DNA of 41,875 nt from a virus: positions 1 to 41,875 of the IMG/VR virus record IMGVR_UViG_3300049032_000032; one strand, 5' to 3'. The position numbers were made by a program, and so were the translations under genes. How positions within the stretch are numbered: position 1 is the stretch's first letter; each line of letters opens with the position of its first letter. This document shows positions 3,560 to 21,415 of the stretch, piece after piece. The notes beneath the pieces were generated by a model. The model made no database searches and was not told the origin of the DNA. It saw only the letters and a list, made by a program, of their open reading frames with translations.

Positions 3560-4350
3560 CGTGTCGCCCTTGTCCTCGTCGGGTCCTGGAGCTTGGTGTT
3601 GCCGCGTACCCAGCCCTTGCAGTTAGTGCAGGAGTAGAGCCGATATGAGGTGACGTTCGTGTGCGTGGTGCCGTCGCGCTTGAGCTTCGTGGACCCGCAG
3701 TACGGACAAGAGTGCTCATCACCGCTGAACATGCCATGATGAGGCGCGTTGGTGATCCAAGGCAGTAGCCGAAGATAGGCCTTCTCAGTGATGACCACAT
3801 CGCCGCGGTTGTATTTTTCCATCGTCGCCCAGGCCTTTTCGGAACCTGCGATGCAGTCCAACCACAGATCGAAGCCTTGGTGCTTGACCTTCGCGCCAAC
3901 ACCGGATTGCTGCACCAGGTAGTCGAGTTTCCGTGATGGGAGGTCGAAGCGGTTCTTGTTGGTCTTGATGAGGTCGATGCTCTTGAATGGCTTTGGTGGT
4001 GCCATGCCGGCGAGCATGAAGGCGTTGTTCAGCTTTTTAACGTCGTATCGGTCACCGTTGTAAGTGACGACCACATCAGCTTCTGATAGGAGCTTGTGCG
4101 CGGCTTCAACCATCGGGAGGTAGTCGTCTTTGTGTTCGCTGTAGAACATGACTTCTTTGGATCCGAGCCACTTGGCGGCGAAGCACATCATGCCGCCGTG
4201 GTCGACGATCTGGTTGATGCCGATGTTCTGATCCCAGAGGCCCCAGGTGAAAACTTGTAGGGGCTTCGATTCGATGTCGAGGACCAAGACTTTCGTGTTC
4301 TTGGTTTCGGGGGCGAGTTTGGTGCGTACCTTCTTGGCGAACTGTCCCAT
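3556..4350 (-). CDS. DnaQ-like DEDDy 3'-5' exonuclease with C-terminal zinc ribbon
   Basis: A 264-residue RNase H-fold exonuclease. Exo I is LVLDIESKP (Asp25, Glu27). Exo II is VTYNGDRYDVKKLN (Asp100/Asp103). Exo III is KYNRGDVV, with Tyr180 and Asp184 in YxxxD spacing, which marks the DEDDy subclass. Residues 215-244 add a zinc ribbon (CPYCGS and CTNCKGW). The role is probably 3'-5' trimming or proofreading in phage replication and recombination. The start overlaps the upstream TAA (TAATG) and the stop overlaps the next ATG. Confidence 0.85.
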   Translation of the reverse strand: MGQFAKKVRTKLAPETKNTKVLVLDIESKPLQVFTWGLWDQNIGINQIVDHGGMMCFAAKWLGSKEVMFYSEHKDDYLPMVEAAHKLLSEADVVVTYNGDRYDVKKLNNAFMLAGMAPPKPFKSIDLIKTNKNRFDLPSRKLDYLVQQSGVGAKVKHQGFDLWLDCIAGSEKAWATMEKYNRGDVVITEKAYLRLLPWITNAPHHGMFSGDEHSCPYCGSTKLKRDGTTHTNVTSYRLYSCTNCKGWVRGNTKLQDPTRTRATR

Positions 4351-4544
4351 TACGCAGCCACCCGTTCACACATACAGTCTGACTTTTTGTGCCGACGCAC
4401 CGTATGTTCCGACATTGGATACCCAGCCCCGGTCATGATGCGGGCGACGCTGATGTGGGATGAGGTGTTGAGGAGTTGTTCGAGTGCGGCGTTGTCTTCC
4501 GCGTCGAACTGCTCACGTATGCGATGGAAGATACAGCGGCTCAT
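4350..4544 (-). CDS. Small HTH DNA-binding protein
   Basis: A 64-residue protein. Residues about 30-55 (SVARIMTGAGYPMSEHTVRRHK) look like a helix-turn-helix whose recognition helix is followed by His/Lys and a C-terminal Cys pair (CMC). Short proteins ending TVRRHKK..C.C are common in actinophage early regions and are presumed regulators. AGGGGA lies 8 nt upstream of the ATG. The stop is coupled to the exonuclease gene (TAATG). The upstream leader is the structured region 4583-4760. Confidence 0.65.
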   Translation of the reverse strand: MSRCIFHRIREQFDAEDNAALEQLLNTSSHISVARIMTGAGYPMSEHTVRRHKKSDCMCERVAA

Positions 4545-4582
4545 GGTGGTTTCCCCTGCTCATTGGGTGTTTTAAAAGGGTG

Positions 4583-4760
4583 TTGACGGTTACTTGCGAG
4601 GCCCGCTATGGGCCGCTCTTGGCGGCTGGTTGGTGTCGGGTAGTGTTCACCGTCAAGTGAATCGGTGGGCTGGCAGCTCATGAGATGAGCGGCTCAATGA
4701 GCTTGCACTGCGGGGAAACACGAAAGTGACGTCCCGTCTTACACGCTTAACCAGCCCACC
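4583..4760 (-). ncRNA. Candidate structured non-coding block (two stem-bounded elements)
   Basis: No gene fits here, although neighbouring genes are packed edge to edge. Element A (4664-4760) is bounded by a perfect 10-bp inverted repeat, GGTGGGCTGG/CCAGCCCACC. On the minus strand it contains GCTCAT-CTC-ATGAGC and further short stems. Element B (4583-4656) is bounded by a perfect 8-bp inverted repeat, TTGACGGT/ACCGTCAA, and encloses GGCCC-GCTAT-GGGCC. The arrangement resembles two consecutive folded RNA domains, or an origin-like DNA structure. It is not a recognisable tRNA: no T-loop consensus and no anticodon arm are visible. Strand is inferred from the operon. Confidence 0.4.
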
Positions 4761-4764
4761 AAAC

Positions 4765-4953
4765 TTAGTTGCGGAGGTTTTTGGATGCTCCGCGGAGGAT
4801 GGTGACTGCGTGGGTGAGTGCTGCACGGGCGGGAACTGTTTGGGTATCGTCCATCCCGGCGTCGAGGTCGTCTGCGATGCGTGAGAGGAGAGACGCGTCG
4901 TTGAGGAGGGCCACCGCAACTGGGTGCCTGACACGTTTTGCCGGGTCGTACAT
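4765..4953 (-). CDS. Small hypothetical protein
   Basis: A 62-residue helical protein beginning MYDPAKRVRHPVAVALLN. It has a central LSRIADDLDAG and a C-terminal AALTHAVTILRGASKNLRN. No family is recognised. The ATG at 4953 was preferred over one 30 nt upstream because GAAGGAGG lies at ideal spacing. It follows a promoter and a terminator-like hairpin, and precedes the structured non-coding block. Confidence 0.7.
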   Translation of the reverse strand: MYDPAKRVRHPVAVALLNDASLLSRIADDLDAGMDDTQTVPARAALTHAVTILRGASKNLRN

Positions 4954-4989
4954 GCCGCCTCCTTCGCTAAGTTTTTTGGGCAAAAGGAA

Positions 4990-5017
4990 AGGCCCCGAAC
5001 TTGTCGGAGCCTTTCGC
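4990..5017 (-). terminator. Intrinsic terminator or attenuator just downstream of a promoter
   Basis: On the minus strand AAAGGC-T-CCGA-CAAGT-TCGG-G-GCCTTT forms a strong stem followed by CCTTTTG. It lies between the promoter at 5037-5080 and the first gene (4953), so transcripts starting there would meet it within about 15-20 nt. Possible roles are attenuation, an antitermination target, or insulation from upstream transcription. Confidence 0.6.
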
Positions 5018-5036
5018 CTTCTTCTACCTATTAAAA

Positions 5037-5080
5037 ACGATACAGGACAAACTGTGTATCGTCAAGTACCTTTAAGTACC
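5037..5080 (-). promoter_or_regulatory. Leftward promoter with direct-repeat element and inverted repeat
   Basis: On the minus strand, GGTACTT-AAA-GGTACTT (5080-5064) runs into -35 TTGACG (5065-5060), a 17-bp spacer and -10 TATCGT (5042-5037). The spacer and -10 together contain a perfect inverted repeat CGATACA-N10-TGTATCG, a likely operator. The direct-repeat element recurs upstream of other operons in this genome. Confidence 0.65.
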
Positions 5081-5087
5081 TGCCTGC

Positions 5088-5165
5088 CTAAAAGTTAAGC
5101 GGCCCGGCCTTACAGCCAGGGGAATAGTTGGTGCAACCAGTACAGTCGCCGACTGCGCCTCGCAT
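5088..5165 (-). CDS. Possible 25-aa Cys-rich peptide
   Basis: A short frame, ATG at 5165 to TAG at 5088, encodes 25 residues with CTGC and a third Cys in a CxxC-x5-C pattern (DCTGCTNYSPGCKAG). It overlaps the end of the 57-aa gene in another frame and has a purine-rich GAGGAAAGAG upstream. The Cys spacing suggests metal binding. It is too short to be sure it is expressed. Confidence 0.3.
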   Translation of the reverse strand: MRGAVGDCTGCTNYSPGCKAGPLNF

Positions 5166-5283
5166 GCTTTGCTCTTTCCTCAGCTTTGGCAAGGTACTCG
5201 GCGAACACTTTATCGTCTGAAAGGTCAGGCAGCACTGCGGGCTTGGGAAGCTTGTAGGGAACGCCTGGTCGGGAGGCTTTCAC
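5110..5283 (-). CDS. Small basic hypothetical protein
   Basis: A 57-residue protein. It begins MKASRPGVPYKLPKPA, has an acidic DLSDDKVFAEYLAKAEE helix, then a basic ARRSRR stretch and ends in aromatic/hydrophobic WLHQLFPWL. GTG at 5283 overlaps the upstream TGA (GTGA). No family is recognised. It is the last gene of the transcription unit before the promoter and operator at 5037-5080. Confidence 0.65.
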   Translation of the reverse strand: MKASRPGVPYKLPKPAVLPDLSDDKVFAEYLAKAEERAKHARRSRRLYWLHQLFPWL

Positions 5284-5465
5284 GGCTTTTCCTCAACCCA
5301 TTCATCCAGTCGGCGCTCATACAATCGCTGGAAAGTCACCCCCCGCTTCCCGATCAACTCCAAGGTTTCAAAGTCTTCTGGGTCGCTTGTTTCAGCCAGC
5401 ACTTTCCCGTCCGCATCGATGGCCCTCCACCATTTTGTCGGCTTGCAGTAATCCGCATCAGTCAT
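5280..5465 (-). CDS. Small hypothetical protein
   Basis: A 61-residue protein beginning MTDADYCKPTKWWRAIDADG. It then reads as beta-rich (KVLAETSDPEDF) followed by a basic helix (TFQRLYERRLDEWVEEK). The start overlaps the upstream TGA (ATGA) and the stop overlaps the next GTG, so it is internal to a coupled operon. Its function is unknown; the Trp-rich N-terminus resembles small phage proteins that read 'WWRAID.DG..W.ET'. Confidence 0.7.
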   Translation of the reverse strand: MTDADYCKPTKWWRAIDADGKVLAETSDPEDFETLELIGKRGVTFQRLYERRLDEWVEEKP

Positions 5466-5605
5466 GCTGCGTCCAGCCTGTGGATTCTTGCCTGAATAAC
5501 CTCCCAGTCGTCCCCAGCCCTTGCGCACATGGCCTTGGCTGCGGCCTCAATCGCTTGATCAAATAAGTTCATAGCTGGCTCCCCTGCTTCATTGATCACG
5601 TTCAT
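5462..5605 (-). CDS. Small hypothetical protein, diverged ISDEAVEAA-like family
   Basis: A 47-residue protein. ATG at 5605 overlaps the upstream TGA. An internal ATG (MNLFDQAIEAAAKAM) has its own AGGGGAG and may be the true start, giving 36 residues. The core FDQAIEAAAKAMCARAGDDW resembles the N-terminal half of the DEAVEAA small-protein family found three more times in this genome, but lacks the AAAPYIA half. Confidence 0.6.
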   Translation of the reverse strand: MNVINEAGEPAMNLFDQAIEAAAKAMCARAGDDWEVIQARIHRLDAA

Positions 5606-6399
5606 GCTGCTCCGTTGATCGGGTGTTTGTGGCGGCGGGCGGTGATTTGGTCGAGTACGTCGCCGAGCCTGTATGCCGGCGGGATTGGGTTGCCAGCTTC
5701 GTCGTGTTCGGGGTTGGCCCTGGTGATTTTGTCCCGTAAGGCCCATTTGCGGATTTGGTCGGCGGTAACAGTGTGTCCGTACTGCGGCGCACTGAGTTTC
5801 CGTGAGAGGTCGGTTGCGGTGCCGATGTAGTAGTCTTTGGCGGTTGTTGCATGCGCCCGCCATTTGAGGACTTCGTAGGTAGTGCCGCAGGTTCGGCATT
5901 GGGCTTCCTGGTCACCTTTTGCCGCGTAGAGGTCGCTCTGGCATTCGGCGCATTGTCCTGCGAACACGCGGCCCTCGGTGCGGTGGGCGTGGTCTTGTCC
6001 GTGGCGTAGGTGGGTGCGCAGTTCGGGCTCAACCGTGTGTGCCCAGTCTTGCCGGCGGAGTGTGTCGAGGTGGGTGATGAGGTACGCGGCGATACCCTGG
6101 CTGGTGCGTGAGCTTATAGGGCCGGTGATATAAGCTAATTTTAGGCCCGTGCGCATGAGGTACGTGTGGAGTGCGTGTCGTGCGTCGAATACGTGTTCGT
6201 TGATGGGTAGGGGCGCGTGCAACGGGCCCGAGGACGATACCCTCTCTCCATAGCCCGCTGTCAGCGAGGTTCGTGCAACACCCGCGTCCAACACCTCAAC
6301 GACCCCATCAACCTCCGCCAACGCATAAGCCAGGCTCTCACCACAGGTCGTGCAGACGTAGAAGCCGTCCGGCGTTTCAGAACCACACTTGCAAATCAA
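5602..6399 (-). CDS. Zinc-finger/HTH DNA-binding protein
   Basis: A 265-residue protein. The N-terminus has a zinc ribbon (CKCGSE and CTTCGES). A second follows near residues 150-172 (CAECQSD and CRTCGTT). The C-terminal third (YYIGTATDLSRKLS, then TADQIRKWALRDKI, then YRLGDVLDQI) reads as a MerR-like winged helix that pairs a condition with a row-name 'YRLGDV' strand. This points to a sequence-specific regulator. The start is TTG at 6399 with GAGAGGGA at 5-nt spacing. The stop overlaps the next ATG. Confidence 0.75.
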   Translation of the reverse strand: MICKCGSETPDGFYVCTTCGESLAYALAEVDGVVEVLDAGVARTSLTAGYGERVSSSGPLHAPLPINEHVFDARHALHTYLMRTGLKLAYITGPISSRTSQGIAAYLITHLDTLRRQDWAHTVEPELRTHLRHGQDHAHRTEGRVFAGQCAECQSDLYAAKGDQEAQCRTCGTTYEVLKWRAHATTAKDYYIGTATDLSRKLSAPQYGHTVTADQIRKWALRDKITRANPEHDEAGNPIPPAYRLGDVLDQITARRHKHPINGAA

Positions 6400-6418
6400 T
6401 TGCTATCCCTCTCATTCT

Positions 6419-6586
6419 TCATCCGCCGTGTATCTGGCAAGCGGGGTTTGTCGGTCTGGGGTGGCGTGGGTTGTACCGCCACGGTGGACAGGAGCATCCG
6501 GGGTAACGGTTGGTTGGGCGGCTCCATGATGATGCGGCGCCGGTTCCAACGTCGGGGTGGTCGTTCCCTTCGCTGTCTTTCGCCAT
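6419..6586 (-). CDS. Small Pro/Cys-rich hypothetical protein
   Basis: A 55-residue protein. It begins MAKDSEGNDHPDVGTGAASS, then has RYPGCSCPPWRYNPRHPR and ends NPACQIHGG. Three Cys and several His could bind metal. GAAGGAGCC precedes the ATG at 6586. Its TGA overlaps an 8-codon ATG frame that runs into the TTG start of the zinc/HTH gene. Unrecognised. Confidence 0.6.
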   Translation of the reverse strand: MAKDSEGNDHPDVGTGAASSWSRPTNRYPGCSCPPWRYNPRHPRPTNPACQIHGG

Positions 6587-6621
6587 CGGAGGCTCCTTCG
6601 CCTATCGTTTGCTTTCACGGT

Positions 6622-6789
6622 TCATGGGGTGCCTCCTGTGCCGAGGTTCCAGCGGACGTCGGCGCGTTGTTGGGGTGTGAGCTGGTTCCAGGTTTGTTCG
6701 GTGTGTCCTGAGCGGCTGATGATGATCGCCTCGGACGGGGTTAGACGCTCTACGGGGTGCGGGGCCGGCTTACGACGAAACCAGGTCAT
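6622..6789 (-). CDS. Small hypothetical protein
   Basis: A 55-residue protein beginning MTWFRRKPAPHPVERLTPSE. It has an IIISRSGHTEQTW segment and a TPQQRADVRWNLG helix. ATG at 6789 overlaps the upstream TGA. The reading 'LTPQQRADVRWNLG' resembles small actinophage proteins of unknown role. Its stop is followed by a 7-codon frame before the next gene. Confidence 0.65.
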   Translation of the reverse strand: MTWFRRKPAPHPVERLTPSEAIIISRSGHTEQTWNQLTPQQRADVRWNLGTGGTP

Positions 6790-6995
6790 GACAGCTCCTC
6801 ATCGAAGTGCTTAGCGGATCCAAATCGGAGGAAGGCTACTGCGTGGTAGTTCGACGTGGAGTGCCAGTACTCAGCGGCGAGTTCTGCGTCACTGAATCGC
6901 TTCTCCGTTGCGACGAGGCAGTAGGGCGAGTAGAACCCGCCCATCCGGTAAGCATCCGCTTCGGGGTGCTTCTGGTAGATGGTTAGGTGTTCCAT
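6786..6995 (-). CDS. Small hypothetical protein
   Basis: A 69-residue protein rich in aromatic residues (YQKHPEADAYRMGGFYSPY, then EYWHSTSNYHAVAFLRFG). It is predicted as mixed alpha/beta. ATG at 6995 is preceded by CGAGGAAA and lies inside the end of the upstream gene. The stop overlaps the next ATG. No family is recognised. Confidence 0.7.
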   Translation of the reverse strand: MEHLTIYQKHPEADAYRMGGFYSPYCLVATEKRFSDAELAAEYWHSTSNYHAVAFLRFGSAKHFDEELS

Positions 6996-12208: not shown

Positions 12209-12355
12209 TTAGGACTCGCTTTCTTTGATGTATGCCTCGAGGGCTTTGCGGATGATGTCGGATAGGTTGTCGCCCCGTACAGCGGCGACCTCCTGGGCTT
12301 TCTCCCAAAGCTCCTCGTCTATGCGGACACTACGGCGGGTTGTTCCTTGGCTCAT
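12209..12355 (-). CDS. Ribbon-helix-helix regulator (lytic-strand copy)
   Basis: A 48-residue RHH/CopG-type protein: TTRRSVRIDEELWEKAQ forms the N-terminal strand and helix A, then GDNLSDIIRKALEAYIKES forms helix B. RHH proteins bind DNA as dimers through the paired strand. It closely resembles the 51-aa RHH protein on the plus strand at 18795-18950 (shared RRS-R core, KAQEVA/QAQEVA and GDNLSD.IR.AL). ATG at 12355 overlaps the upstream TGA. A candidate ligand is the palindrome in the twin promoters. Confidence 0.8.
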   Translation of the reverse strand: MSQGTTRRSVRIDEELWEKAQEVAAVRGDNLSDIIRKALEAYIKESES

Positions 12356-12633
12356 GCGGTGGCGTCCTTGTGGTGTCGAAACCCCGCGCCCCAGCCACGC
12401 TCGTAGGCATCCTTTACCATCGGGTTGGGAGAGTCCTTGTTGAATAGAAGCGGAGTTTCGAGCTCATGAGCGATTGCCCTGAGATTCCCTTCTCGGATGA
12501 ATCCCGCGAGCATGTGCGGTGCCGCAGCCTCAACCGCTTTGACGCACTTACCGCGCCAGTCGAGGCAATACTCTAGGTCGTCTTCGCAGATCGCCCGGTG
12601 CGCTGCTTCTACTGCTTCGTCACTGATCTGCAT
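12352..12633 (-). CDS. ISDEAVEAA-family small protein (lytic-strand copy)
   Basis: A 93-residue protein. The N-terminus ISDEAVEAAHRAICEDDLEY and the later KAVEAAAPHMLAGFI match the small proteins at 17970 and 18947, with DEAVEAA at the start and AAAPxh in the middle. The C-terminal extension (VKDAYERGWGAGFRHHKD) is unique to this copy. GGGGAGAACA precedes the ATG at 12633. The family is common in actinophages and its function is unknown. Confidence 0.75.
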   Translation of the reverse strand: MQISDEAVEAAHRAICEDDLEYCLDWRGKCVKAVEAAAPHMLAGFIREGNLRAIAHELETPLLFNKDSPNPMVKDAYERGWGAGFRHHKDATA

Positions 12634-16653: not shown

Positions 16654-17325
16654 GTGGAAGCTATGAGCAACATCTCGGCAGAAGACATCAGGAATGGAAG
16701 GGAGCGGAAAATGATGACCCAGCAGGAACTAGCGGATGAGGTTGGTGTTTCGCTCCGCACGGTCAGCTCTTGGGAGCGCGGCGAGACGGTGCCCCGGAAT
16801 CGGTTAGGTGTCATAGCTGAAGTCCTCGGGCTTGAGGGCGCTAGGGAGTTCGGTCGCGAGGCTCTACTTCGCCAGCTCGGACGCCTTGCTAAGCAGCGGA
16901 GGGAAGAAATTGGCTTGGGGAGGCCTGCGTTCGCTAAGGAAGCGGGTCTAGGGTCAGACAAGACCGTGGCCTCCTTCGAATTTGGGCGGGTACTTCCCTC
17001 TGGCGTCTCTCAAAGGAAGATCGAGAAGGCCCTTGGTTGGAGGCTCGGCATTATTGACGAGTGCATGAGGATGGTTGACCGCAAAGCTTCCACGATTGAC
17101 ATGACCGAACTCGACGCGGAAGACAGCCTCTACATCCAGTCCCAGGGTGGCATCTCTTCGCTGGCCCTTGTCTCTGATGATGACCTGCTCGCGGAGGTGC
17201 GCCGGCGGATGACTTCGCGCACGGGCCGGAACTTGTCTAGGGAGGCGCAGGATATCTATGGGCTGGCGGCTTCGACTAACGCTGAGCACATCGAGGACGA
17301 GGACCACGACGATACCGCGGAGTAG
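16654..17325 (+). CDS. Immunity repressor with two tandem HTH domains
   Basis: A 223-residue protein. The first XRE domain (residues about 10-60) reads MMTQQELADEVGVSLRTVSS then WERGETVPRNRLGVIAEVLG. A second HTH-like region (75-135) reads LAKQRREEIGLGRPAFAKEA, GSDKTVASFEFGR and RKIEKALGW. The C-terminus is acidic (EHIEDEDHDDTAE) and lacks a LexA-type protease domain. This suits a CI-like repressor that is inactivated by a partner protease rather than by self-cleavage. Start is GTG at 16654 after GGGGGAAG, or ATG at 16663. The ImmA-like gene follows. Confidence 0.85.
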   Translation: MEAMSNISAEDIRNGRERKMMTQQELADEVGVSLRTVSSWERGETVPRNRLGVIAEVLGLEGAREFGREALLRQLGRLAKQRREEIGLGRPAFAKEAGLGSDKTVASFEFGRVLPSGVSQRKIEKALGWRLGIIDECMRMVDRKASTIDMTELDAEDSLYIQSQGGISSLALVSDDDLLAEVRRRMTSRTGRNLSREAQDIYGLAASTNAEHIEDEDHDDTAE

Positions 17326-17462
17326 GTTACGGTCTCGTGATTAAGGACACGCGTCAACTTTCCATTAATAGGACGTTTTCTTCTGAAACTGTCACAGGTC
17401 TCGTTTAGCTTTAACGGGTTGGTTTCGATTGAGGCCGACACGGGTTCCGGTTCTGGGGGTTT

Positions 17463-17870
17463 TTGGTTTTGTTCGTGTATAGGGTGCGTATGACTGATGG
17501 TGTGGCAGCTCGTACGGATGGGGTGGATATTTGGATTGATGACAGGCTGAACGAGGTTCAGGAGAAGTGCGCGATAGTCCATGAGGAAATCCATATCGAG
17601 CGCGGCCACAGCACGGTTCAACCCGAGGCGGTGGAGATGGGCGTCAGGTATGAGGCAGCGCGTCGGCTGCTACCGGACTCCGGCATCGGTTCGTGCAGCG
17701 GGTCTACGTTGGCTCAGGTGGCTCGTAACTTGGGTGTGACGCGCCAGGTTTTGATGGATCGGGCCGCGACGTTGACGGACGAGGAAACAGAGCGTGCCGG
17801 CTGCCTATCCTGCCGACTCTGCCCGATCATCGACGCTAGGTACCCAGCGAAACAGTACGCCAACGCTTAG
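17463..17870 (+). CDS. ImmA/IrrE-family metallopeptidase
   Basis: Up to 135 residues. It contains the zinc protease motif VHEEIHIERGH (HExxH near residues 39-43), with YEAARRLLPDSGI downstream and a Cys pair near the C-terminus (CLSCRLC). In ICEBs1-like and many actinophage immunity systems such a protease cleaves the adjacent repressor to trigger induction. The start is uncertain: TTG at 17463 or 17469, or ATG at 17490. The 137-bp gap after the repressor has no clear gene. A strong terminator follows the stop. Confidence 0.8.
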   Translation: MVLFVYRVRMTDGVAARTDGVDIWIDDRLNEVQEKCAIVHEEIHIERGHSTVQPEAVEMGVRYEAARRLLPDSGIGSCSGSTLAQVARNLGVTRQVLMDRAATLTDEETERAGCLSCRLCPIIDARYPAKQYANA

Positions 17871-17882
17871 TCTGCACCTTTT

Positions 17883-17907
17883 AGCCCCCGTTAGCGCGGG
17901 GGCTTTC
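17883..17907 (+). terminator. Intrinsic terminator after the ImmA-like gene
   Basis: AGCCCCC-GTTAGCGC-GGGGGCT followed by TTC. The same core (CCCGTTAGCGCGGGGGCTTT) recurs at 18328-18352, where it lies inside an open reading frame. Confidence 0.85.
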
Positions 17908-17919
17908 TGGTGGGCTGGT

Positions 17920-17963
17920 GGTACGCGGAAGTACTTACGCCGTTGAGTCTTTCGGGGTATCGT
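17920..17963 (+). promoter_or_regulatory. Rightward promoter with direct-repeat element; leaderless start
   Basis: GGTACGC-GGA-AGTACTT (17920-17936) leads into -35 TTACGC (17935-17940), a 17-bp spacer and -10 TATCGT (17958-17963). The ATG of the next gene is 6 nt further, where transcription should start. Confidence 0.65.
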
Positions 17964-17969
17964 TGGGGT

Positions 17970-18173
17970 ATGAGCGACAATAAACCAATGATCAGTGACG
18001 AAGCAGTAGAAGCGGTGTACGACAAGTTCTTTCACTTGGGACTTAGCGCAACCCAGATTGAGGGGATCCTTGAGGCGGCGGCGCCGTACATCGCGGCTCA
18101 GGCTTGGGATGAGGGCCGGGAATCGGTCGACTTCGACAGCTGCGGCATTAACCCGTATAGGAGCCAGGCGTGA
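17970..18173 (+). CDS. ISDEAVEAA-family small protein (leaderless copy)
   Basis: A 67-residue protein (MSDNKPMISDEAVEAVYDKF, then GILEAAAPYIAAQAWDEG, ending GINPYRSQA). It shares DEAVEAx and EAAAPYIAAQxWDE with the protein at 18947-19195, and more weakly with 12352-12633. No SD is present; the ATG falls at the predicted transcript start. Its last codons belong to the 24-nt junction repeat that also starts the next gene. Function unknown. Confidence 0.75.
   Translation: MSDNKPMISDEAVEAVYDKFFHLGLSATQIEGILEAAAPYIAAQAWDEGRESVDFDSCGINPYRSQA
18150..18173 (+). repeat. Junction repeat copy 1 (stop + SD + start cassette)
   Basis: AACCCGTATAGGAGCCAGGC followed by GTGA. It encodes the C-terminal NPYRSQA and stop of the upstream gene, contains the SD (TAGGAG) and supplies the GTG start of the next gene. 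Confidence 0.9.
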
Positions 18174-18382
18174 ACGATATGACATGGTACTTGGTCGGCG
18201 CCGGGCTGTGGATCTTCGCCACTGGCTTCAATCACGCCCTGTATCGGAGTAAGTGGACGGCGCGTGCTTTCTTCGCGTTCCCTGTCTGGCCTGTTGCGCT
18301 AGTCGTGTTCGCGGGCATGGGGCTCGTGCCCCCGTTAGCGCGGGGGCTTTTTGGTGGGGGGGGGTGCTTAAAGAAACTTTGA
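18170..18382 (+). CDS. Small membrane protein whose frame runs through a terminator
   Basis: A 70-residue frame from GTG 18170, with the SD in the junction repeat. Residues about 5-22 (TWYLVGAGLWIFATGF) and 36-58 (FPVWPVALVVFAGMGLV) are probable membrane helices. From residue about 53 the frame reads through the terminator at 18328-18352, and its stop (18380-18382) lies inside the next promoter's direct-repeat element. If termination is efficient, the mRNA has no stop codon. The last 17 codons may therefore be an accident of a truncated gene. Confidence 0.6.
   Translation: MNDMTWYLVGAGLWIFATGFNHALYRSKWTARAFFAFPVWPVALVVFAGMGLVPPLARGLFGGGGCLKKL
18328..18352 (+). terminator. Intrinsic terminator (second copy of the 17.9 kb hairpin)
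   Basis: GCCCCC-GTTAGCGC-GGGGGC followed by TTTTT. The core is identical to the terminator after the ImmA-like gene but here has a better U-tract. It lies inside the 3' end of the membrane-protein frame. Confidence 0.85.
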
Positions 18383-18429
18383 TGATTGGGTGCTTTTGGG
18401 TAGACAAGCGGTGTCAAGACACCTAGACT
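18363..18429 (+). promoter_or_regulatory. Rightward twin promoter with palindromic operator in the spacer
   Basis: GGTGCTT-AAA-GAAACTT (18363-18379), then GGGTGCTTTTGGGTA overlapping -35 TAGACA (18401-18406), a 17-bp spacer with GGTGTCAAGACACC (18410-18423), and -10 TAGACT (18424-18429). It is the counterpart of the leftward promoter at 13040-13106. Confidence 0.75.
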
Positions 18430-18469
18430 AGATACATAAGCAAGGAACACCAACCAAGGAGAGATTCAA

Positions 18470-18652
18470 ATGATCGCAGTAGAAAACCTCGAAGTCGGAA
18501 TGATGATCATCCCCGAAGGCCGCAAGCTCGCCGTAGAGGTCATGAGCGTTGACAACTGGGGCAACGAGAGCCTCTACAAGATCGGCCACTATGGCAAGGG
18601 CTTCAACGTAACCGCCGTTCCCGCCGGCGCAATGGTCCGGCTCGCAGCATGA
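18470..18652 (+). CDS. Small beta-rich hypothetical protein
   Basis: A 60-residue protein (MIAVENLEVGMMIIPEGRKL, then MSVDNWGNESLYKIGHYGKG). The 'L.VGM.I' opening followed by short strands resembles small SH3/OB-like beta proteins, also seen in intein-like or SAF folds, but no family can be named. AAGGAGA precedes the ATG, about 40 nt after the -10 of the twin promoter. Its TGA overlaps the next ATG. Confidence 0.7.
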   Translation: MIAVENLEVGMMIIPEGRKLAVEVMSVDNWGNESLYKIGHYGKGFNVTAVPAGAMVRLAA

Positions 18653-18798
18653 ACAACCGGGCGGAGGCCCTCGCAATCGCGAGGGCCGCTGTTCCCTACT
18701 ACCAGGAACAGTATGAAGCTAAACCGAACTGGTATACGGAGTCACGGCTAGCCTTAGCGCAACGAGCGGTAGAAGTGCTGGAAGGGGAGCCCGCATGA
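18649..18798 (+). CDS. 49-aa helical protein
   Basis: A 49-residue protein beginning MNNRAEALAIARAAVPYYQE and ending RLALAQRAVEVLEGEPA. Two helices are joined by a Trp/Tyr-containing linker. Both ends overlap neighbours by ATGA, so it lies inside a coupled operon between the beta-rich protein and the RHH regulator. Its AEALAIARAAVPYY resembles helices in small actinophage proteins of unknown role. Confidence 0.65.
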   Translation: MNNRAEALAIARAAVPYYQEQYEAKPNWYTESRLALAQRAVEVLEGEPA

Positions 18799-18950
18799 GT
18801 AAGGGAACTATCCGCCGCAGCATCCGGGTTGGCGAGCTATGGGACCAAGCGCAGGAAGTCGCCAACCAGAACGGCGACAACCTATCCGACGTAATCCGGC
18901 AAGCACTTGCACAATACGTGCGAGACAAGCAGGAAGGCCCCCCAGAATGA
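18795..18950 (+). CDS. Ribbon-helix-helix regulator (lysogeny-strand copy)
   Basis: A 51-residue RHH protein: TIRRSIRVGELWDQAQEVA, then GDNLSDVIRQALAQYVRDKQ. It is a paralogue of the 48-aa protein at 12209-12355. Both operons carry the same promoter palindrome, so one or both RHH proteins are good candidates to bind it. ATG at 18795 and TGA at 18948-18950 both overlap neighbours. Confidence 0.8.
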   Translation: MSKGTIRRSIRVGELWDQAQEVANQNGDNLSDVIRQALAQYVRDKQEGPPE

Positions 18951-19195
18951 TCAGTGACGAAGCAGTAGAAGCAGCGGCGCGTGCTCAGTTCGAGAAATGG
19001 CACCCCGAAAAGAAATGGGACGATAGGCCTGACATTCAGAGGATCTTCCGGCGAGATGCGCTGGTCTCCCTTGAGGCGGCGGCACCGTACATCGCCGCTC
19101 AGGTTTGGGACGAGGCAGCCGCCAGCATCATCGACGAACACGGCAACCCCATCCAACCAACCAACATCAACAACCCGTATAGGAGCCAGGCATGA
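18947..19195 (+). CDS. ISDEAVEAA-family small protein (lysogeny-strand copy)
   Basis: An 82-residue protein (MISDEAVEAAARAQFEKWHP, then SLEAAAPYIAAQVWDEA, ending NNPYRSQA). ATG at 18947 overlaps the RHH stop; a longer in-frame reading from 18839 would cover the RHH gene. The linker between the two conserved halves is 19 residues longer than in the 17970 copy. The 3' end is the second junction repeat. Confidence 0.75.
   Translation: MISDEAVEAAARAQFEKWHPEKKWDDRPDIQRIFRRDALVSLEAAAPYIAAQVWDEAAASIIDEHGNPIQPTNINNPYRSQA
19172..19195 (+). repeat. Junction repeat copy 2
   Basis: AACCCGTATAGGAGCCAGGC followed by ATGA; the only copy giving an ATG start to the next gene. Confidence 0.9.
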
Positions 19196-19341
19196 GCGCT
19201 GTAGCGAAGTGCAACGAGCCGATGCGGACCCAGAACGGCAACACGTACAAATGCACCAAGCCGTTAGGGCATAGGGGCCAGCACGTAGACAGCCGCCACC
19301 CAATCAGACGATGGACCAACCCGTATAGGAGCCAGGCGTGA
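19192..19341 (+). CDS. 49-aa Cys/His protein
   Basis: A 49-residue protein (MSAVAKCNEPMRTQNGNTYK, then CTKPLGHRGQHVDSRHP, ending NPYRSQA). The C-N-E-P...Y-x-C-x3-LGHxGxH pattern fits a compact zinc knuckle seen in small phage proteins. Start and stop both fall in junction repeats, so it looks like a cassette inserted between two identical boundaries. Confidence 0.65.
   Translation: MSAVAKCNEPMRTQNGNTYKCTKPLGHRGQHVDSRHPIRRWTNPYRSQA
19318..19341 (+). repeat. Junction repeat copy 3
   Basis: AACCCGTATAGGAGCCAGGC followed by GTGA, giving the GTG start of the 87-aa gene. Confidence 0.9.
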
Positions 19342-19601
19342 ATGAGATAAGGCGGCAGTGCAAGGACATCCTGGATGGCCCATTGCTTGGACTCATCGCC
19401 CGCAAGCAGCGCGAGAAGGGCATGTGGGTAAACACGTGGGACTTCGAGCCGCCATACTCCGAACTGCCTGACAATCTGTTCCGAGCCAAGATGGGACAAC
19501 TCATGAAGCGCGGGCTGATCGACGGGTGCAACTGCGGATGCCGAGGCGACTACGAGTTGACCGACAAGGGCAGAGAGTTCCTAGCTAACGCGACGGCCTA
19601 A
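19338..19601 (+). CDS. Winged-helix-like small protein
   Basis: An 87-residue protein (MNEIRRQCKDILDGPLLGLI, then PDNLFRAKMGQLMKRGLIDG, then CNCGCRGDYELTDKGREFL). The LxxRGLI-C-x-CGCRGDYELTxKGxEF core is a winged helix with a wing strand of the 'y.LT.kG' type and a CxCxC turn. It resembles small DNA-binding proteins of actinophages. GTG start from junction repeat 3. A terminator follows the stop. Confidence 0.7.
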   Translation: MNEIRRQCKDILDGPLLGLIARKQREKGMWVNTWDFEPPYSELPDNLFRAKMGQLMKRGLIDGCNCGCRGDYELTDKGREFLANATA

Positions 19602-19605
19602 TGAA

Positions 19606-19636
19606 GGCCCTTCACCTGTCCGGGTGGGGGCTTTTT
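19606..19636 (+). terminator. Intrinsic terminator
   Basis: GCCC-TT-CACC-TGTCC-GGTG-GG-GGC followed by TTTTT, directly after the 87-aa gene. Confidence 0.75.
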
Positions 19637-19683
19637 GGTGGGTGCGACCATACGTAGTCGCCTCGGGCTATGGACTCTTCACC

Positions 19684-19707
19684 AACCCGTATAGGAGCCA
19701 GGCGTGA
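19684..19707 (+). repeat. Junction repeat copy 4
   Basis: AACCCGTATAGGAGCCAGGC followed by GTGA. The upstream frame that would end in NPYRSQA is only 21 codons (GTG 19642), starting inside the tail of the preceding terminator, so the repeat here seems to have been acquired together with its gene. Confidence 0.9.
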
Positions 19708-19901
19708 GGATCTACCAGCCCGTTGATGGCCCTGACCGTCTGCCGCAAGCGATGATCGAGGGCTCGACGGAATACGACTGGGCTGAACTGCCTGAGTACC
19801 TGAAGGAAATCATGCGCCAAGCCGCAAGAGATTTCACGAGATGGGCCGAGACGGAAGCGAAGCCGATCCAAGGGGAACTCGCCAACGAACTGAACGAGTA
19901 G
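19704..19901 (+). CDS. Small acidic hypothetical protein
   Basis: A 65-residue protein (MRIYQPVDGPDRLPQAMIEG, then TEYDWAELPEYLKEIMRQAA). Mostly helical, with an acidic C-terminal half. GTG at 19704 and its SD come from junction repeat 4. A terminator follows at 19911. No family recognised. Confidence 0.65.
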   Translation: MRIYQPVDGPDRLPQAMIEGSTEYDWAELPEYLKEIMRQAARDFTRWAETEAKPIQGELANELNE

Positions 19902-20245: not shown

Positions 20246-21415
20246 ATGGCCTCCATCCGTACCCGCCAACGTAAAGATGGCAGTGAGTACTACACCATCA
20301 CGTGGCGGGAGGATGGTCAGCAGCGGGCGCACTCGTTCGACACGATGCGCGAAGCCGAAACCTGGAAGCGGCTACTCGACGCTAACGGCCAGTCGATGAC
20401 GAAAGCCGTTGACATGTACGAGGCCAGTGAGCACGAGGGCCCGACCGTTGCCGAGGCCATGACGGACCACATCGACCAGCTCGTCGGGACCACGCCGTAC
20501 ACCATCAAGCGTTACCGCAGCGCCGTGCGACTTCACTTCTCCGGGCCCCTCGGTAGAATGAAGATCAAAGCCGTCACCCATGACCACATCATCGAGTGGA
20601 TCAAATGGATGCAGGACCGGGACAAGGGTGCCAAGACGATAGCCCTACAGCACGGTCTACTCTCCGCAACAATGGAGACGGCAGAGCGTAAGGGGATCAT
20701 CGAGAAGAACCCTTGCAGGGGCGTGAGGCTCCCTAAGAAGGCCCGTGTCGGCGCGGATGGGGACGACATTGACCTTGATGACTTCCGCGCCATACGTGAC
20801 CGTACAGAGCCGCACTTCCAGCCCTTCCTAGACTTCCTTGTTGGCACTGGTTGCCGGTTCAGTGAAGCCACGCCGCTACTGGCGTCCGACTTCGCACTGG
20901 AAGCTAACCCGCCGATGGTGTTCATCACGAAGGCGCACAAACTTGGCGGCGATGAGGATCCTGCCCGGTATGTGGGAGAACCAAAGTCAAGGAAGTCGCG
21001 CCGGCGGGTGTCGCTAGCCCCGTCCACAGTCGCGTCCATCCGCCCATTGGTGGAGCAAGCCGCGCAGGATGGCGGGCCCGTGTTCCGAATGAAGGAAGGC
21101 GGAGTCTTTACCAGTCAGTCGTTTTACAATCACAGCTGGGAGCGGGCCAGGCGTGAGGCGGGGCTCGGCATCGGATCCTCCAAGCACGTCACGGTCCACT
21201 CGATTAGACATCTCCATGCGGCGATCATGCTCCACGCAGGCATGAGCCTCTATGAGTTGTCCACGCGCCTCGGGCACACGTCGATTCAGATCACCGCGGA
21301 CCTTTATGCCAGCCTTGTGCCGGACGCCCACTTTAGGGGCGCCCAGCACGCGGCAAAAGCTCTAGGCGGCGTCTCGTTCGGTGATACGGGGATGGAACTC
21401 GACGAGGTCGGCTAG
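20246..21415 (+). CDS. int: Tyrosine recombinase integrase
   Basis: A 389-residue integrase. The N-terminus (MASIRTRQRKDGSEYYTITW) is an arm-binding AP2-like strand domain. A SAM-like core-binding domain spans about 65-165. The catalytic domain has Arg204 in GTGCRFSEA, a Lys near 247-249, HSIRHLHA (His318, Arg321), LGHTS (His344) and the nucleophile Tyr354 in ADLYASL. All RKHRH(Y) residues are visible. It recombines attP with a host attB. The GAGGGA SD precedes the ATG. The 3' end overlaps the convergent HNH gene by 54 bp. Confidence 0.95.
   Translation: MASIRTRQRKDGSEYYTITWREDGQQRAHSFDTMREAETWKRLLDANGQSMTKAVDMYEASEHEGPTVAEAMTDHIDQLVGTTPYTIKRYRSAVRLHFSGPLGRMKIKAVTHDHIIEWIKWMQDRDKGAKTIALQHGLLSATMETAERKGIIEKNPCRGVRLPKKARVGADGDDIDLDDFRAIRDRTEPHFQPFLDFLVGTGCRFSEATPLLASDFALEANPPMVFITKAHKLGGDEDPARYVGEPKSRKSRRRVSLAPSTVASIRPLVEQAAQDGGPVFRMKEGGVFTSQSFYNHSWERARREAGLGIGSSKHVTVHSIRHLHAAIMLHAGMSLYELSTRLGHTSIQITADLYASLVPDAHFRGAQHAAKALGGVSFGDTGMELDEVG

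What the first reader, a model, noticed from the sequence alone, without database searches (positions are those of the whole stretch)
18150..19707. A 24-nt translational junction repeated four times between unrelated small genes
AACCCGTATAGGAGCCAGGC plus RTGA occurs at 18150, 19172, 19318 and 19684. Each copy encodes the C-terminal NPYRSQA and stop of the upstream frame, carries the SD, and supplies the start codon of the next gene. The proteins on either side are otherwise unrelated. Identical DNA, not just protein, at four gene borders suggests homologous recombination at boundary sequences, making a swap site for small cargo genes in the lysogeny operon.
Basis: partly seen in the sequence, partly recalled or inferred. 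Interest (0 to 1): 0.78.

Follow-up and report, generated by a model that had tools for sequence, protein, structure and literature searches.

The report
Reused stop-start junction between phage genes
In a soil phage related to Arthrobacter viruses, one 20-letter DNA stretch sits at four gene borders and does two jobs at once, coding the end of one small protein and telling the ribosome where to start the next; it comes from an unannotated family of small phage proteins and has been copied onto unrelated genes.

Summary
The repeat is real: four exact 20-nt copies plus RTGA, none expected by chance. Two claims fail. The genes ending at copies 1 and 2 are paralogues, not unrelated. Copy 4 follows a terminator, with no real gene upstream.

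Best reading: the junction is the 3' end of an unannotated small-protein family of actinobacterial phages (DEAVEAA…LEAAAP…AWDEG…NPYR). Codons TAY-AGG-AGY for "YRS" also form the Shine-Dalgarno, and the TGA stop overlaps the next start. Across phages NPYR stays fixed while the Shine-Dalgarno moves with the start. With three tail residues the Arg codon is AGG in 12/15 cases; with five or more, 0/28.

Near-identical junctions precede different genes elsewhere: Arthrobacter phage Hestia 55|56 (26/27 nt) and contig L013 (same peptide, two silent changes). In this window the junction was also copied onto an unrelated 49-aa gene and an intergenic gap, so small genes are bracketed by perfect direct repeats, like removable cassettes. 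Copying is inferred from identity; a dedicated swap-site function is not shown.

Closest known: Start-Associated Sequences (criteria not met) and boundary-sequence recombination (Island3 gp67/68). New variant of a known kind.

The parts
18150..18173 (+). junction copy 1: NPYRSQA* of gene 17970-18173, SD AGGAG, GTGA start of gene 18170
19172..19195 (+). junction copy 2: NPYRSQA* of gene 18947-19195, SD, ATGA start of gene 19192
19318..19341 (+). junction copy 3: NPYRSQA* on the unrelated 49-aa frame 19192-19341, SD, GTGA start of gene 19338
19684..19707 (+). junction copy 4: intergenic, SD and GTGA start of gene 19704; no convincing upstream gene
17970..18173 (+). DEAVEA/AWDEG/NPYR family gene, paralogue 1 (67 aa)
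18170..18382 (+). 70-aa frame with a hydrophobic stretch (membrane-like by eye); its 3' end overlaps a terminator
   Evidence: no family
18328..18347 (+). terminator-like hairpin GCCCCCGTTAGCGCGGGGGC-T5
   Evidence: near-identical copy at 17884
18795..18950 (+). ribbon-helix-helix (Arc-like) protein, overlaps the start of paralogue 2
18947..19195 (+). DEAVEA/AWDEG/NPYR family gene, paralogue 2 (82 aa)
19192..19341 (+). 49-aa Cys/His protein carrying a captured NPYRSQA tail; bracketed by copies 2 and 3
19338..19601 (+). winged-HTH-like protein (phrog_5135), between copies 3 and 4
19609..19630 (+). terminator-like hairpin between copy 3's gene and copy 4
19704..19901 (+). 65-aa frame started by copy 4
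20246..21415 (+). tyrosine integrase at the end of the array

Best explanation
The repeat is the dual-purpose end of a small phage gene. In an unannotated family of actinobacterial phage proteins (blocks DEAVEAA, LEAAAP, AWDEG, then NPYR close to the C-terminus), the codons for YRS (TAY-AGG-AGY) also form the Shine-Dalgarno site of the next gene, and the TGA stop overlaps its ATG/GTG start. A ribosome finishing the family protein is thereby placed to start the next gene (translational coupling). Shown by sequence: the family, the conserved NPY(R) tail, the overlap, and the shift of the Shine-Dalgarno with the start while NPYR stays put. Inferred: coupling in vivo. In this genome the junction has also been copied by recombination onto an unrelated gene (copy 3) and into an intergenic gap (copy 4), becoming a portable start module, so that small genes between copies are bracketed by perfect direct repeats and could be lost or exchanged without a scar (inferred, not observed).
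For: Family alignment with DEAVEAA, LEAAAP, AWDEG and NPYR blocks. A core scan that did not ask for NPYR found 11 complete proteins, all ending in NPY, 9 of them NPYR. L013 ends in NPYRSQA with two silent changes. Hestia gene 55 has 26/27 nt of the junction before a different gene. With an RTGA overlap, Arg is AGG in 12/15 when three residues follow NPYR and 0/28 when five or more do; AGG is about 8% of Arg codons in long frames of the same contigs. SD spacing stays about 6-8 nt for the well-sampled tail lengths while the tail length varies. Third positions of N, P and Y codons vary silently. Copies 3 and 4 share all 20 nt though not attached to the family.
Against: No expression data. Sequences are related, so the codon test overstates independent evidence. 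Three of 15 three-residue tails do not use AGG. Copies 3 and 4 keep the NPY part although no family protein needs it, which needs either recent copying or an extra DNA- or RNA-level role. No relative was found that is identical apart from a gained or lost cassette.
Confidence: 0.7

Rival explanations
1. One reading: the 24-mer is primarily a homologous-recombination boundary sequence, a swap site kept identical so that small cargo genes can be exchanged in the lysogeny operon.
For: Perfect identity of four copies with unrelated flanks; different downstream genes in every phage; near-identical junction in Hestia; the phage has a RecE-like exonuclease and an SSB; published precedent in Island3 (PMC3029335).
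Against: The sequence is explained by coding plus SD constraints; multi-junction phages other than this one show no clear within-genome homogenisation; 20-24 nt is short for efficient homologous recombination (general knowledge); no exchange event was seen.
Confidence: 0.2
2. SAS-like element: a conserved ribosome-binding sequence recognised by a phage or host factor (RNA or protein), unrelated to the peptide it happens to encode.
For: Position at the SD, extra conserved bases around AGGAG, ATAGGAGCC core shared with the cluster K SAS, use in an intergenic place at copy 4.
Against: Three mismatches to the SAS consensus, only four copies, three of them in coding sequence, unrelated flanks instead of ESAS; bases outside the SD vary silently in relatives.
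Confidence: 0.1
3. NPYRSQA is a functional peptide tag (for binding or turnover) placed on several proteins; the SD use is secondary.
For: NPYR is conserved at protein level together with AWDEG and also occurs on the unrelated 49-aa protein and on a protein without AWDEG in L025.
Against: Residues after NPYR vary and track the SD; copy 4 ends no real gene; the last residues are the least confident part of the model.
Confidence: 0.1

Closest known systems
Start-Associated Sequences (SAS/ESAS) of cluster K mycobacteriophages and Microbacterium cluster EF phages (PMC3203893, PMC7302621)
   Same: Short, unusually conserved sequence with AGGAG at the RBS of several unrelated small genes in one phage; ATAGGAGCC core shared with the cluster K SAS.
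   Different: SAS lie mostly in gaps over 50 bp, number 11-19 per cluster K genome and fit GGGATAGGAGCCC within two mismatches; here four copies, three inside coding sequence, three mismatches, no ESAS-like flank.
Boundary-sequence recombination, Island3 gp67/gp68 (PMC3029335)
   Same: Neighbouring genes with otherwise different proteins share C-terminal residues and DNA at the border.
   Different: Island3 shares 18 residues / about 50 bp of another peptide (RYQLAHVR.VAGRK.RRR); here 20-24 nt that include the SD and the next start, four copies, spread to an intergenic place.
Overlapping gene pairs with termination-reinitiation (PMC6728339)
   Same: 4-nt stop-start overlap with an SD inside the upstream gene.
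   Different: Here the SD is built from codons of a conserved peptide motif and the same junction DNA is reused at four borders.
Arthrobacter phage Hestia gp55 and the AWDEG/NPYR family
   Same: Same protein family; Hestia 55|56 has the junction at 26/27 nt.
   Different: One such junction in Hestia against four here; different downstream gene.

Membership tests
Start-Associated Sequences (cluster K) | Matches GGGATAGGAGCCC with at most two mismatches | tested here: not met
   CGTATAGGAGCCA has three mismatches (sequence against the criterion)
Start-Associated Sequences (cluster K) | Ends 3-7 bp before a start codon | tested here: met
   The 13-mer is followed by GGC then RTG in all four copies
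Start-Associated Sequences (cluster K) | Mostly in intergenic gaps over 50 bp | tested here: not met
   Three of four copies lie inside an overlapping upstream frame
Start-Associated Sequences (cluster K) | 11-19 copies per genome | tested here: not met
   Four copies in 41,875 bases
Start-Associated Sequences (cluster K) | Extended SAS inverted repeats upstream of about half the copies | tested here: not met
   Flanks of the copies are unrelated
Boundary-sequence recombination | Same short sequence at borders of different genes, in different genomes | tested here: met
   Hestia 55|56, L013
Boundary-sequence recombination | Evidence of an exchange between copies | tested here: inconclusive
   Identity of copies and varied gene content only; no pair of relatives differing by one cassette found
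Translationally coupled overlapping gene pair | Stop and start overlap, with an SD in the 3' end of the upstream gene | tested here: met
   RTGA and AGGAG 6 nt before the start in copies 1-3; no upstream gene at copy 4
Translationally coupled overlapping gene pair | Downstream translation depends on upstream translation | not testable with these tools
   Needs reporter assays or ribosome profiling
DEAVEA/AWDEG/NPYR small phage protein family (defined here) | [IV][SP]DEAVEA, LEAAAP, AWDE, NPYR near the C-terminus | tested here: met
   Upstream genes of copies 1 and 2; the upstream frame of copy 3 has only the NPYR tail
Ribosome modulation factor (PF04957), considered for the A..GY.AG...NPY resemblance | Pfam gathering score reached | tested here: not met
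   Best E 0.038 and 0.058, far below the cut-off

The most novel reading that the evidence does not exclude
Some temperate actinophages carry a phage-specific start module: a 20-24 nt stretch combining C-terminal codons, Shine-Dalgarno and overlapping start, which spreads by annealing or gene conversion among small genes of the lysogeny operon and turns them into scar-free, exchangeable expression cassettes without any recombinase-specific site. Hum25 and Pitbull would use a second such module (GCGGGGGCnGGGGAATGA).
Probability: 0.25. Interest if true: 0.75.

Novelty: new variant of a known kind. Interest (0 to 1): 0.5.

Why it matters
A conserved peptide motif and a ribosome-binding site share the same bases, with codon choice tracking where the next gene starts. 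It gives a concrete, testable example of how small-gene arrays of phages could be shuffled without damage to frame or expression, an old question about how mosaicism arises at gene borders. It also names an unannotated actinophage protein family that links these junctions.

Tried and rejected
Chance: excluded. Exact 17-mer in IMG/VR: two hits only, inside other coding sequence of unrelated contigs, judged chance. Exact or silent-variant junction in GTDB genomes: none. NPYRS pattern in 395 genomes of the family of Kocuria: one hit, not followed up. Plasmids: none. SAS membership: not met. RMF homology: not met. Fold comparison: no solved relative; the best viral matches include family members (Hestia) and other Arthrobacter phage proteins, none below E 0.001. 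tRNA genes in the window: none. A first pattern for counting junctions in whole records was too short and was replaced. Counts from the scan that fixed AGGAG were not used for the codon test, because that pattern imposes the result. General homogenisation of junctions within genomes: not supported without the window. Papers naming NPYR: none relevant.

Full report
What is there. The 20-mer AACCCGTATAGGAGCCAGGC followed by RTGA occurs exactly at 18150, 19172, 19318 and 19684, all on the + strand, with no further match at up to three mismatches and none expected in shuffles. Outside the 24 nt the copies are unrelated. The window is a whole IMG/VR record of 41,875 bases. It is a temperate siphovirus-like phage whose tape-measure protein is closest to Arthrobacter phage ArV2. 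Terminase, portal, major head, RecE-like exonuclease, SSB, excisionase-like and integrase genes were recognised. The copies lie between the repressor and IrrE-like genes (16666-17870) and the integrase (20246-21415).

Correction to the observation. The genes ending at copies 1 and 2 (17970-18173, 18947-19195) are paralogues: BLASTP E=5e-12, with identical or near-identical DNA at both conserved segments. Copy 3 ends an unrelated 49-aa Cys/His frame. Copy 4 follows a terminator-like hairpin, has only a short GTG frame upstream, and serves as ribosome-binding site and start of the 65-aa frame.

Where the sequence comes from. Relatives with a 70-73% identical integrase (L012-L014) include two with the same kind of gene end. 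L013 4426-4650 ends in NPYRSQA with DNA AACCCCTACAGGAGCCAGGCGTGA, two silent changes from the window. L014 5446-5757 ends in NPYRSNL with AACCCCTACAGGAGCAATCTGTGA. In the cultured Arthrobacter phage Hestia, gene 55 ends AACCCGTATAGGAGCCAGCCGTGA; 26 of 27 nt match, and the downstream gene is different. Aligned members share MI[PS]DEAVEAA, LEAAAP, AWDEG and NPYR (those members were collected by NPYR). Pfam and NCBIfam give only scattered sub-threshold hits, and PHROGs only unnamed weak ones. A scan for the AAAP-AQAWDEG core that did not ask for NPYR found 11 complete proteins; all have NPY near the end, 9 of them NPYR, one NPYK and one NPYC. Most family members lacking AWDEG, such as window 12352-12633 on the - strand, lack NPYR, so the two motifs tend to go together.

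Dual coding. Among its members with an RTGA overlap, Arg is AGG in 12 of 15 when three residues follow NPYR and in 0 of 28 when five or more follow; AGG is about 8% of Arg codons in long frames of the same contigs. The Shine-Dalgarno stays about 6-8 nt from the start for the well-sampled tail lengths while the tail length varies, and third positions of the N, P and Y codons vary silently. The bases of the junction therefore answer to two constraints: a peptide motif and a ribosome-binding site. The sequences are related by descent, so the Fisher value (3e-8) overstates the independent evidence.

What is special in this window. Four copies are identical over 20 nt, including silent positions, and two of them are attached to things that are not the family. 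That points to copying of DNA within this genome or a recent ancestor. Other phages with two or three NPYRS junctions show no clear excess of within-genome identity (559 of 5000 permutations reach the observed value without the window), although L025 has three similar ones, one on a protein without AWDEG. Phages Hum25 and Pitbull reuse a different junction, GCGGGGGCnGGGGAATGA, at several gene borders. As a result, the 49-aa gene (19192-19317), the block 18170-19171 and the block 19338-19683 are each bracketed by direct 20-nt repeats placed so that recombination between copies would leave an intact stop-start junction. Such events were not observed. The junction is absent from the GTDB contigs, and the NPYRS pattern occurs in 1 of 395 genomes of the Kocuria family.

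Mechanism proposed. The family protein is translated; the ribosome reaches TGA inside RTGA with AGGAG of its own last codons 6 nt before the new start, and reinitiates. This step is inferred; coupling at such overlaps was tested in other systems (PMC6728339). Because the unit is self-contained, a copy placed before any small gene could express it, which would favour its spread (inferred).

Comparison. It works like the Start-Associated Sequences of cluster K and EF phages (PMC3203893, PMC7302621) but fails their sequence, location and copy-number criteria. It resembles the shared gene ends of Island3 gp67/gp68, which were read as recombination at short homologous sequences (PMC3029335); that record shows a different peptide. 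An AlphaFold2 model of 18947-19192 gives two helices (mean pLDDT 92) with no solved relative.

Verdict. New variant of known kinds; interest moderate.

Noticed in passing
window 12209-12355 and 12352-12633 (-); 18795-18950 and 18947-19195 (+): A ribbon-helix-helix gene next to a DEAVEA-family gene occurs twice, on opposite strands and in opposite gene order; the two RHH proteins are 57% identical.
   Followed up: partly
L010 (Hum25) 3952-4779 and L090 (Pitbull) 4312-6839: Another repeated junction, GCGGGGGCnGGGGAATGA ending proteins in AGAGE, recurs at several small-gene borders of these cultured Arthrobacter phages.
   Followed up: partly
window 17884-17914 and 18328-18358: Terminator hairpin GCCCCCGTTAGCGCGGGGGC duplicated, 97% over 31 nt; the second copy lies inside the 3' end of the 70-aa frame.
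   Followed up: no
window 19338-19601: Winged-HTH-like protein with homologues in Brevundimonas, Pseudomonas, Curtobacterium, Arthrobacter and cluster K mycobacteriophages.
   Followed up: no
L022 10179: Junction piece ATAGGAGCGGCACGTGA before a gene whose upstream protein ends HDRSGT, without NPY, sharing AGGAGCGGCACGTGA with an NPYRSGT junction in the same contig.
   Followed up: no
window 17935-17970: By eye, a possible -10 (TATCGT) 6 nt before ATG 17970, mirrored by TAGGCT before an ATG at 3856 in L013, would fit a leaderless transcript; the promoter scan did not list it.
   Followed up: no
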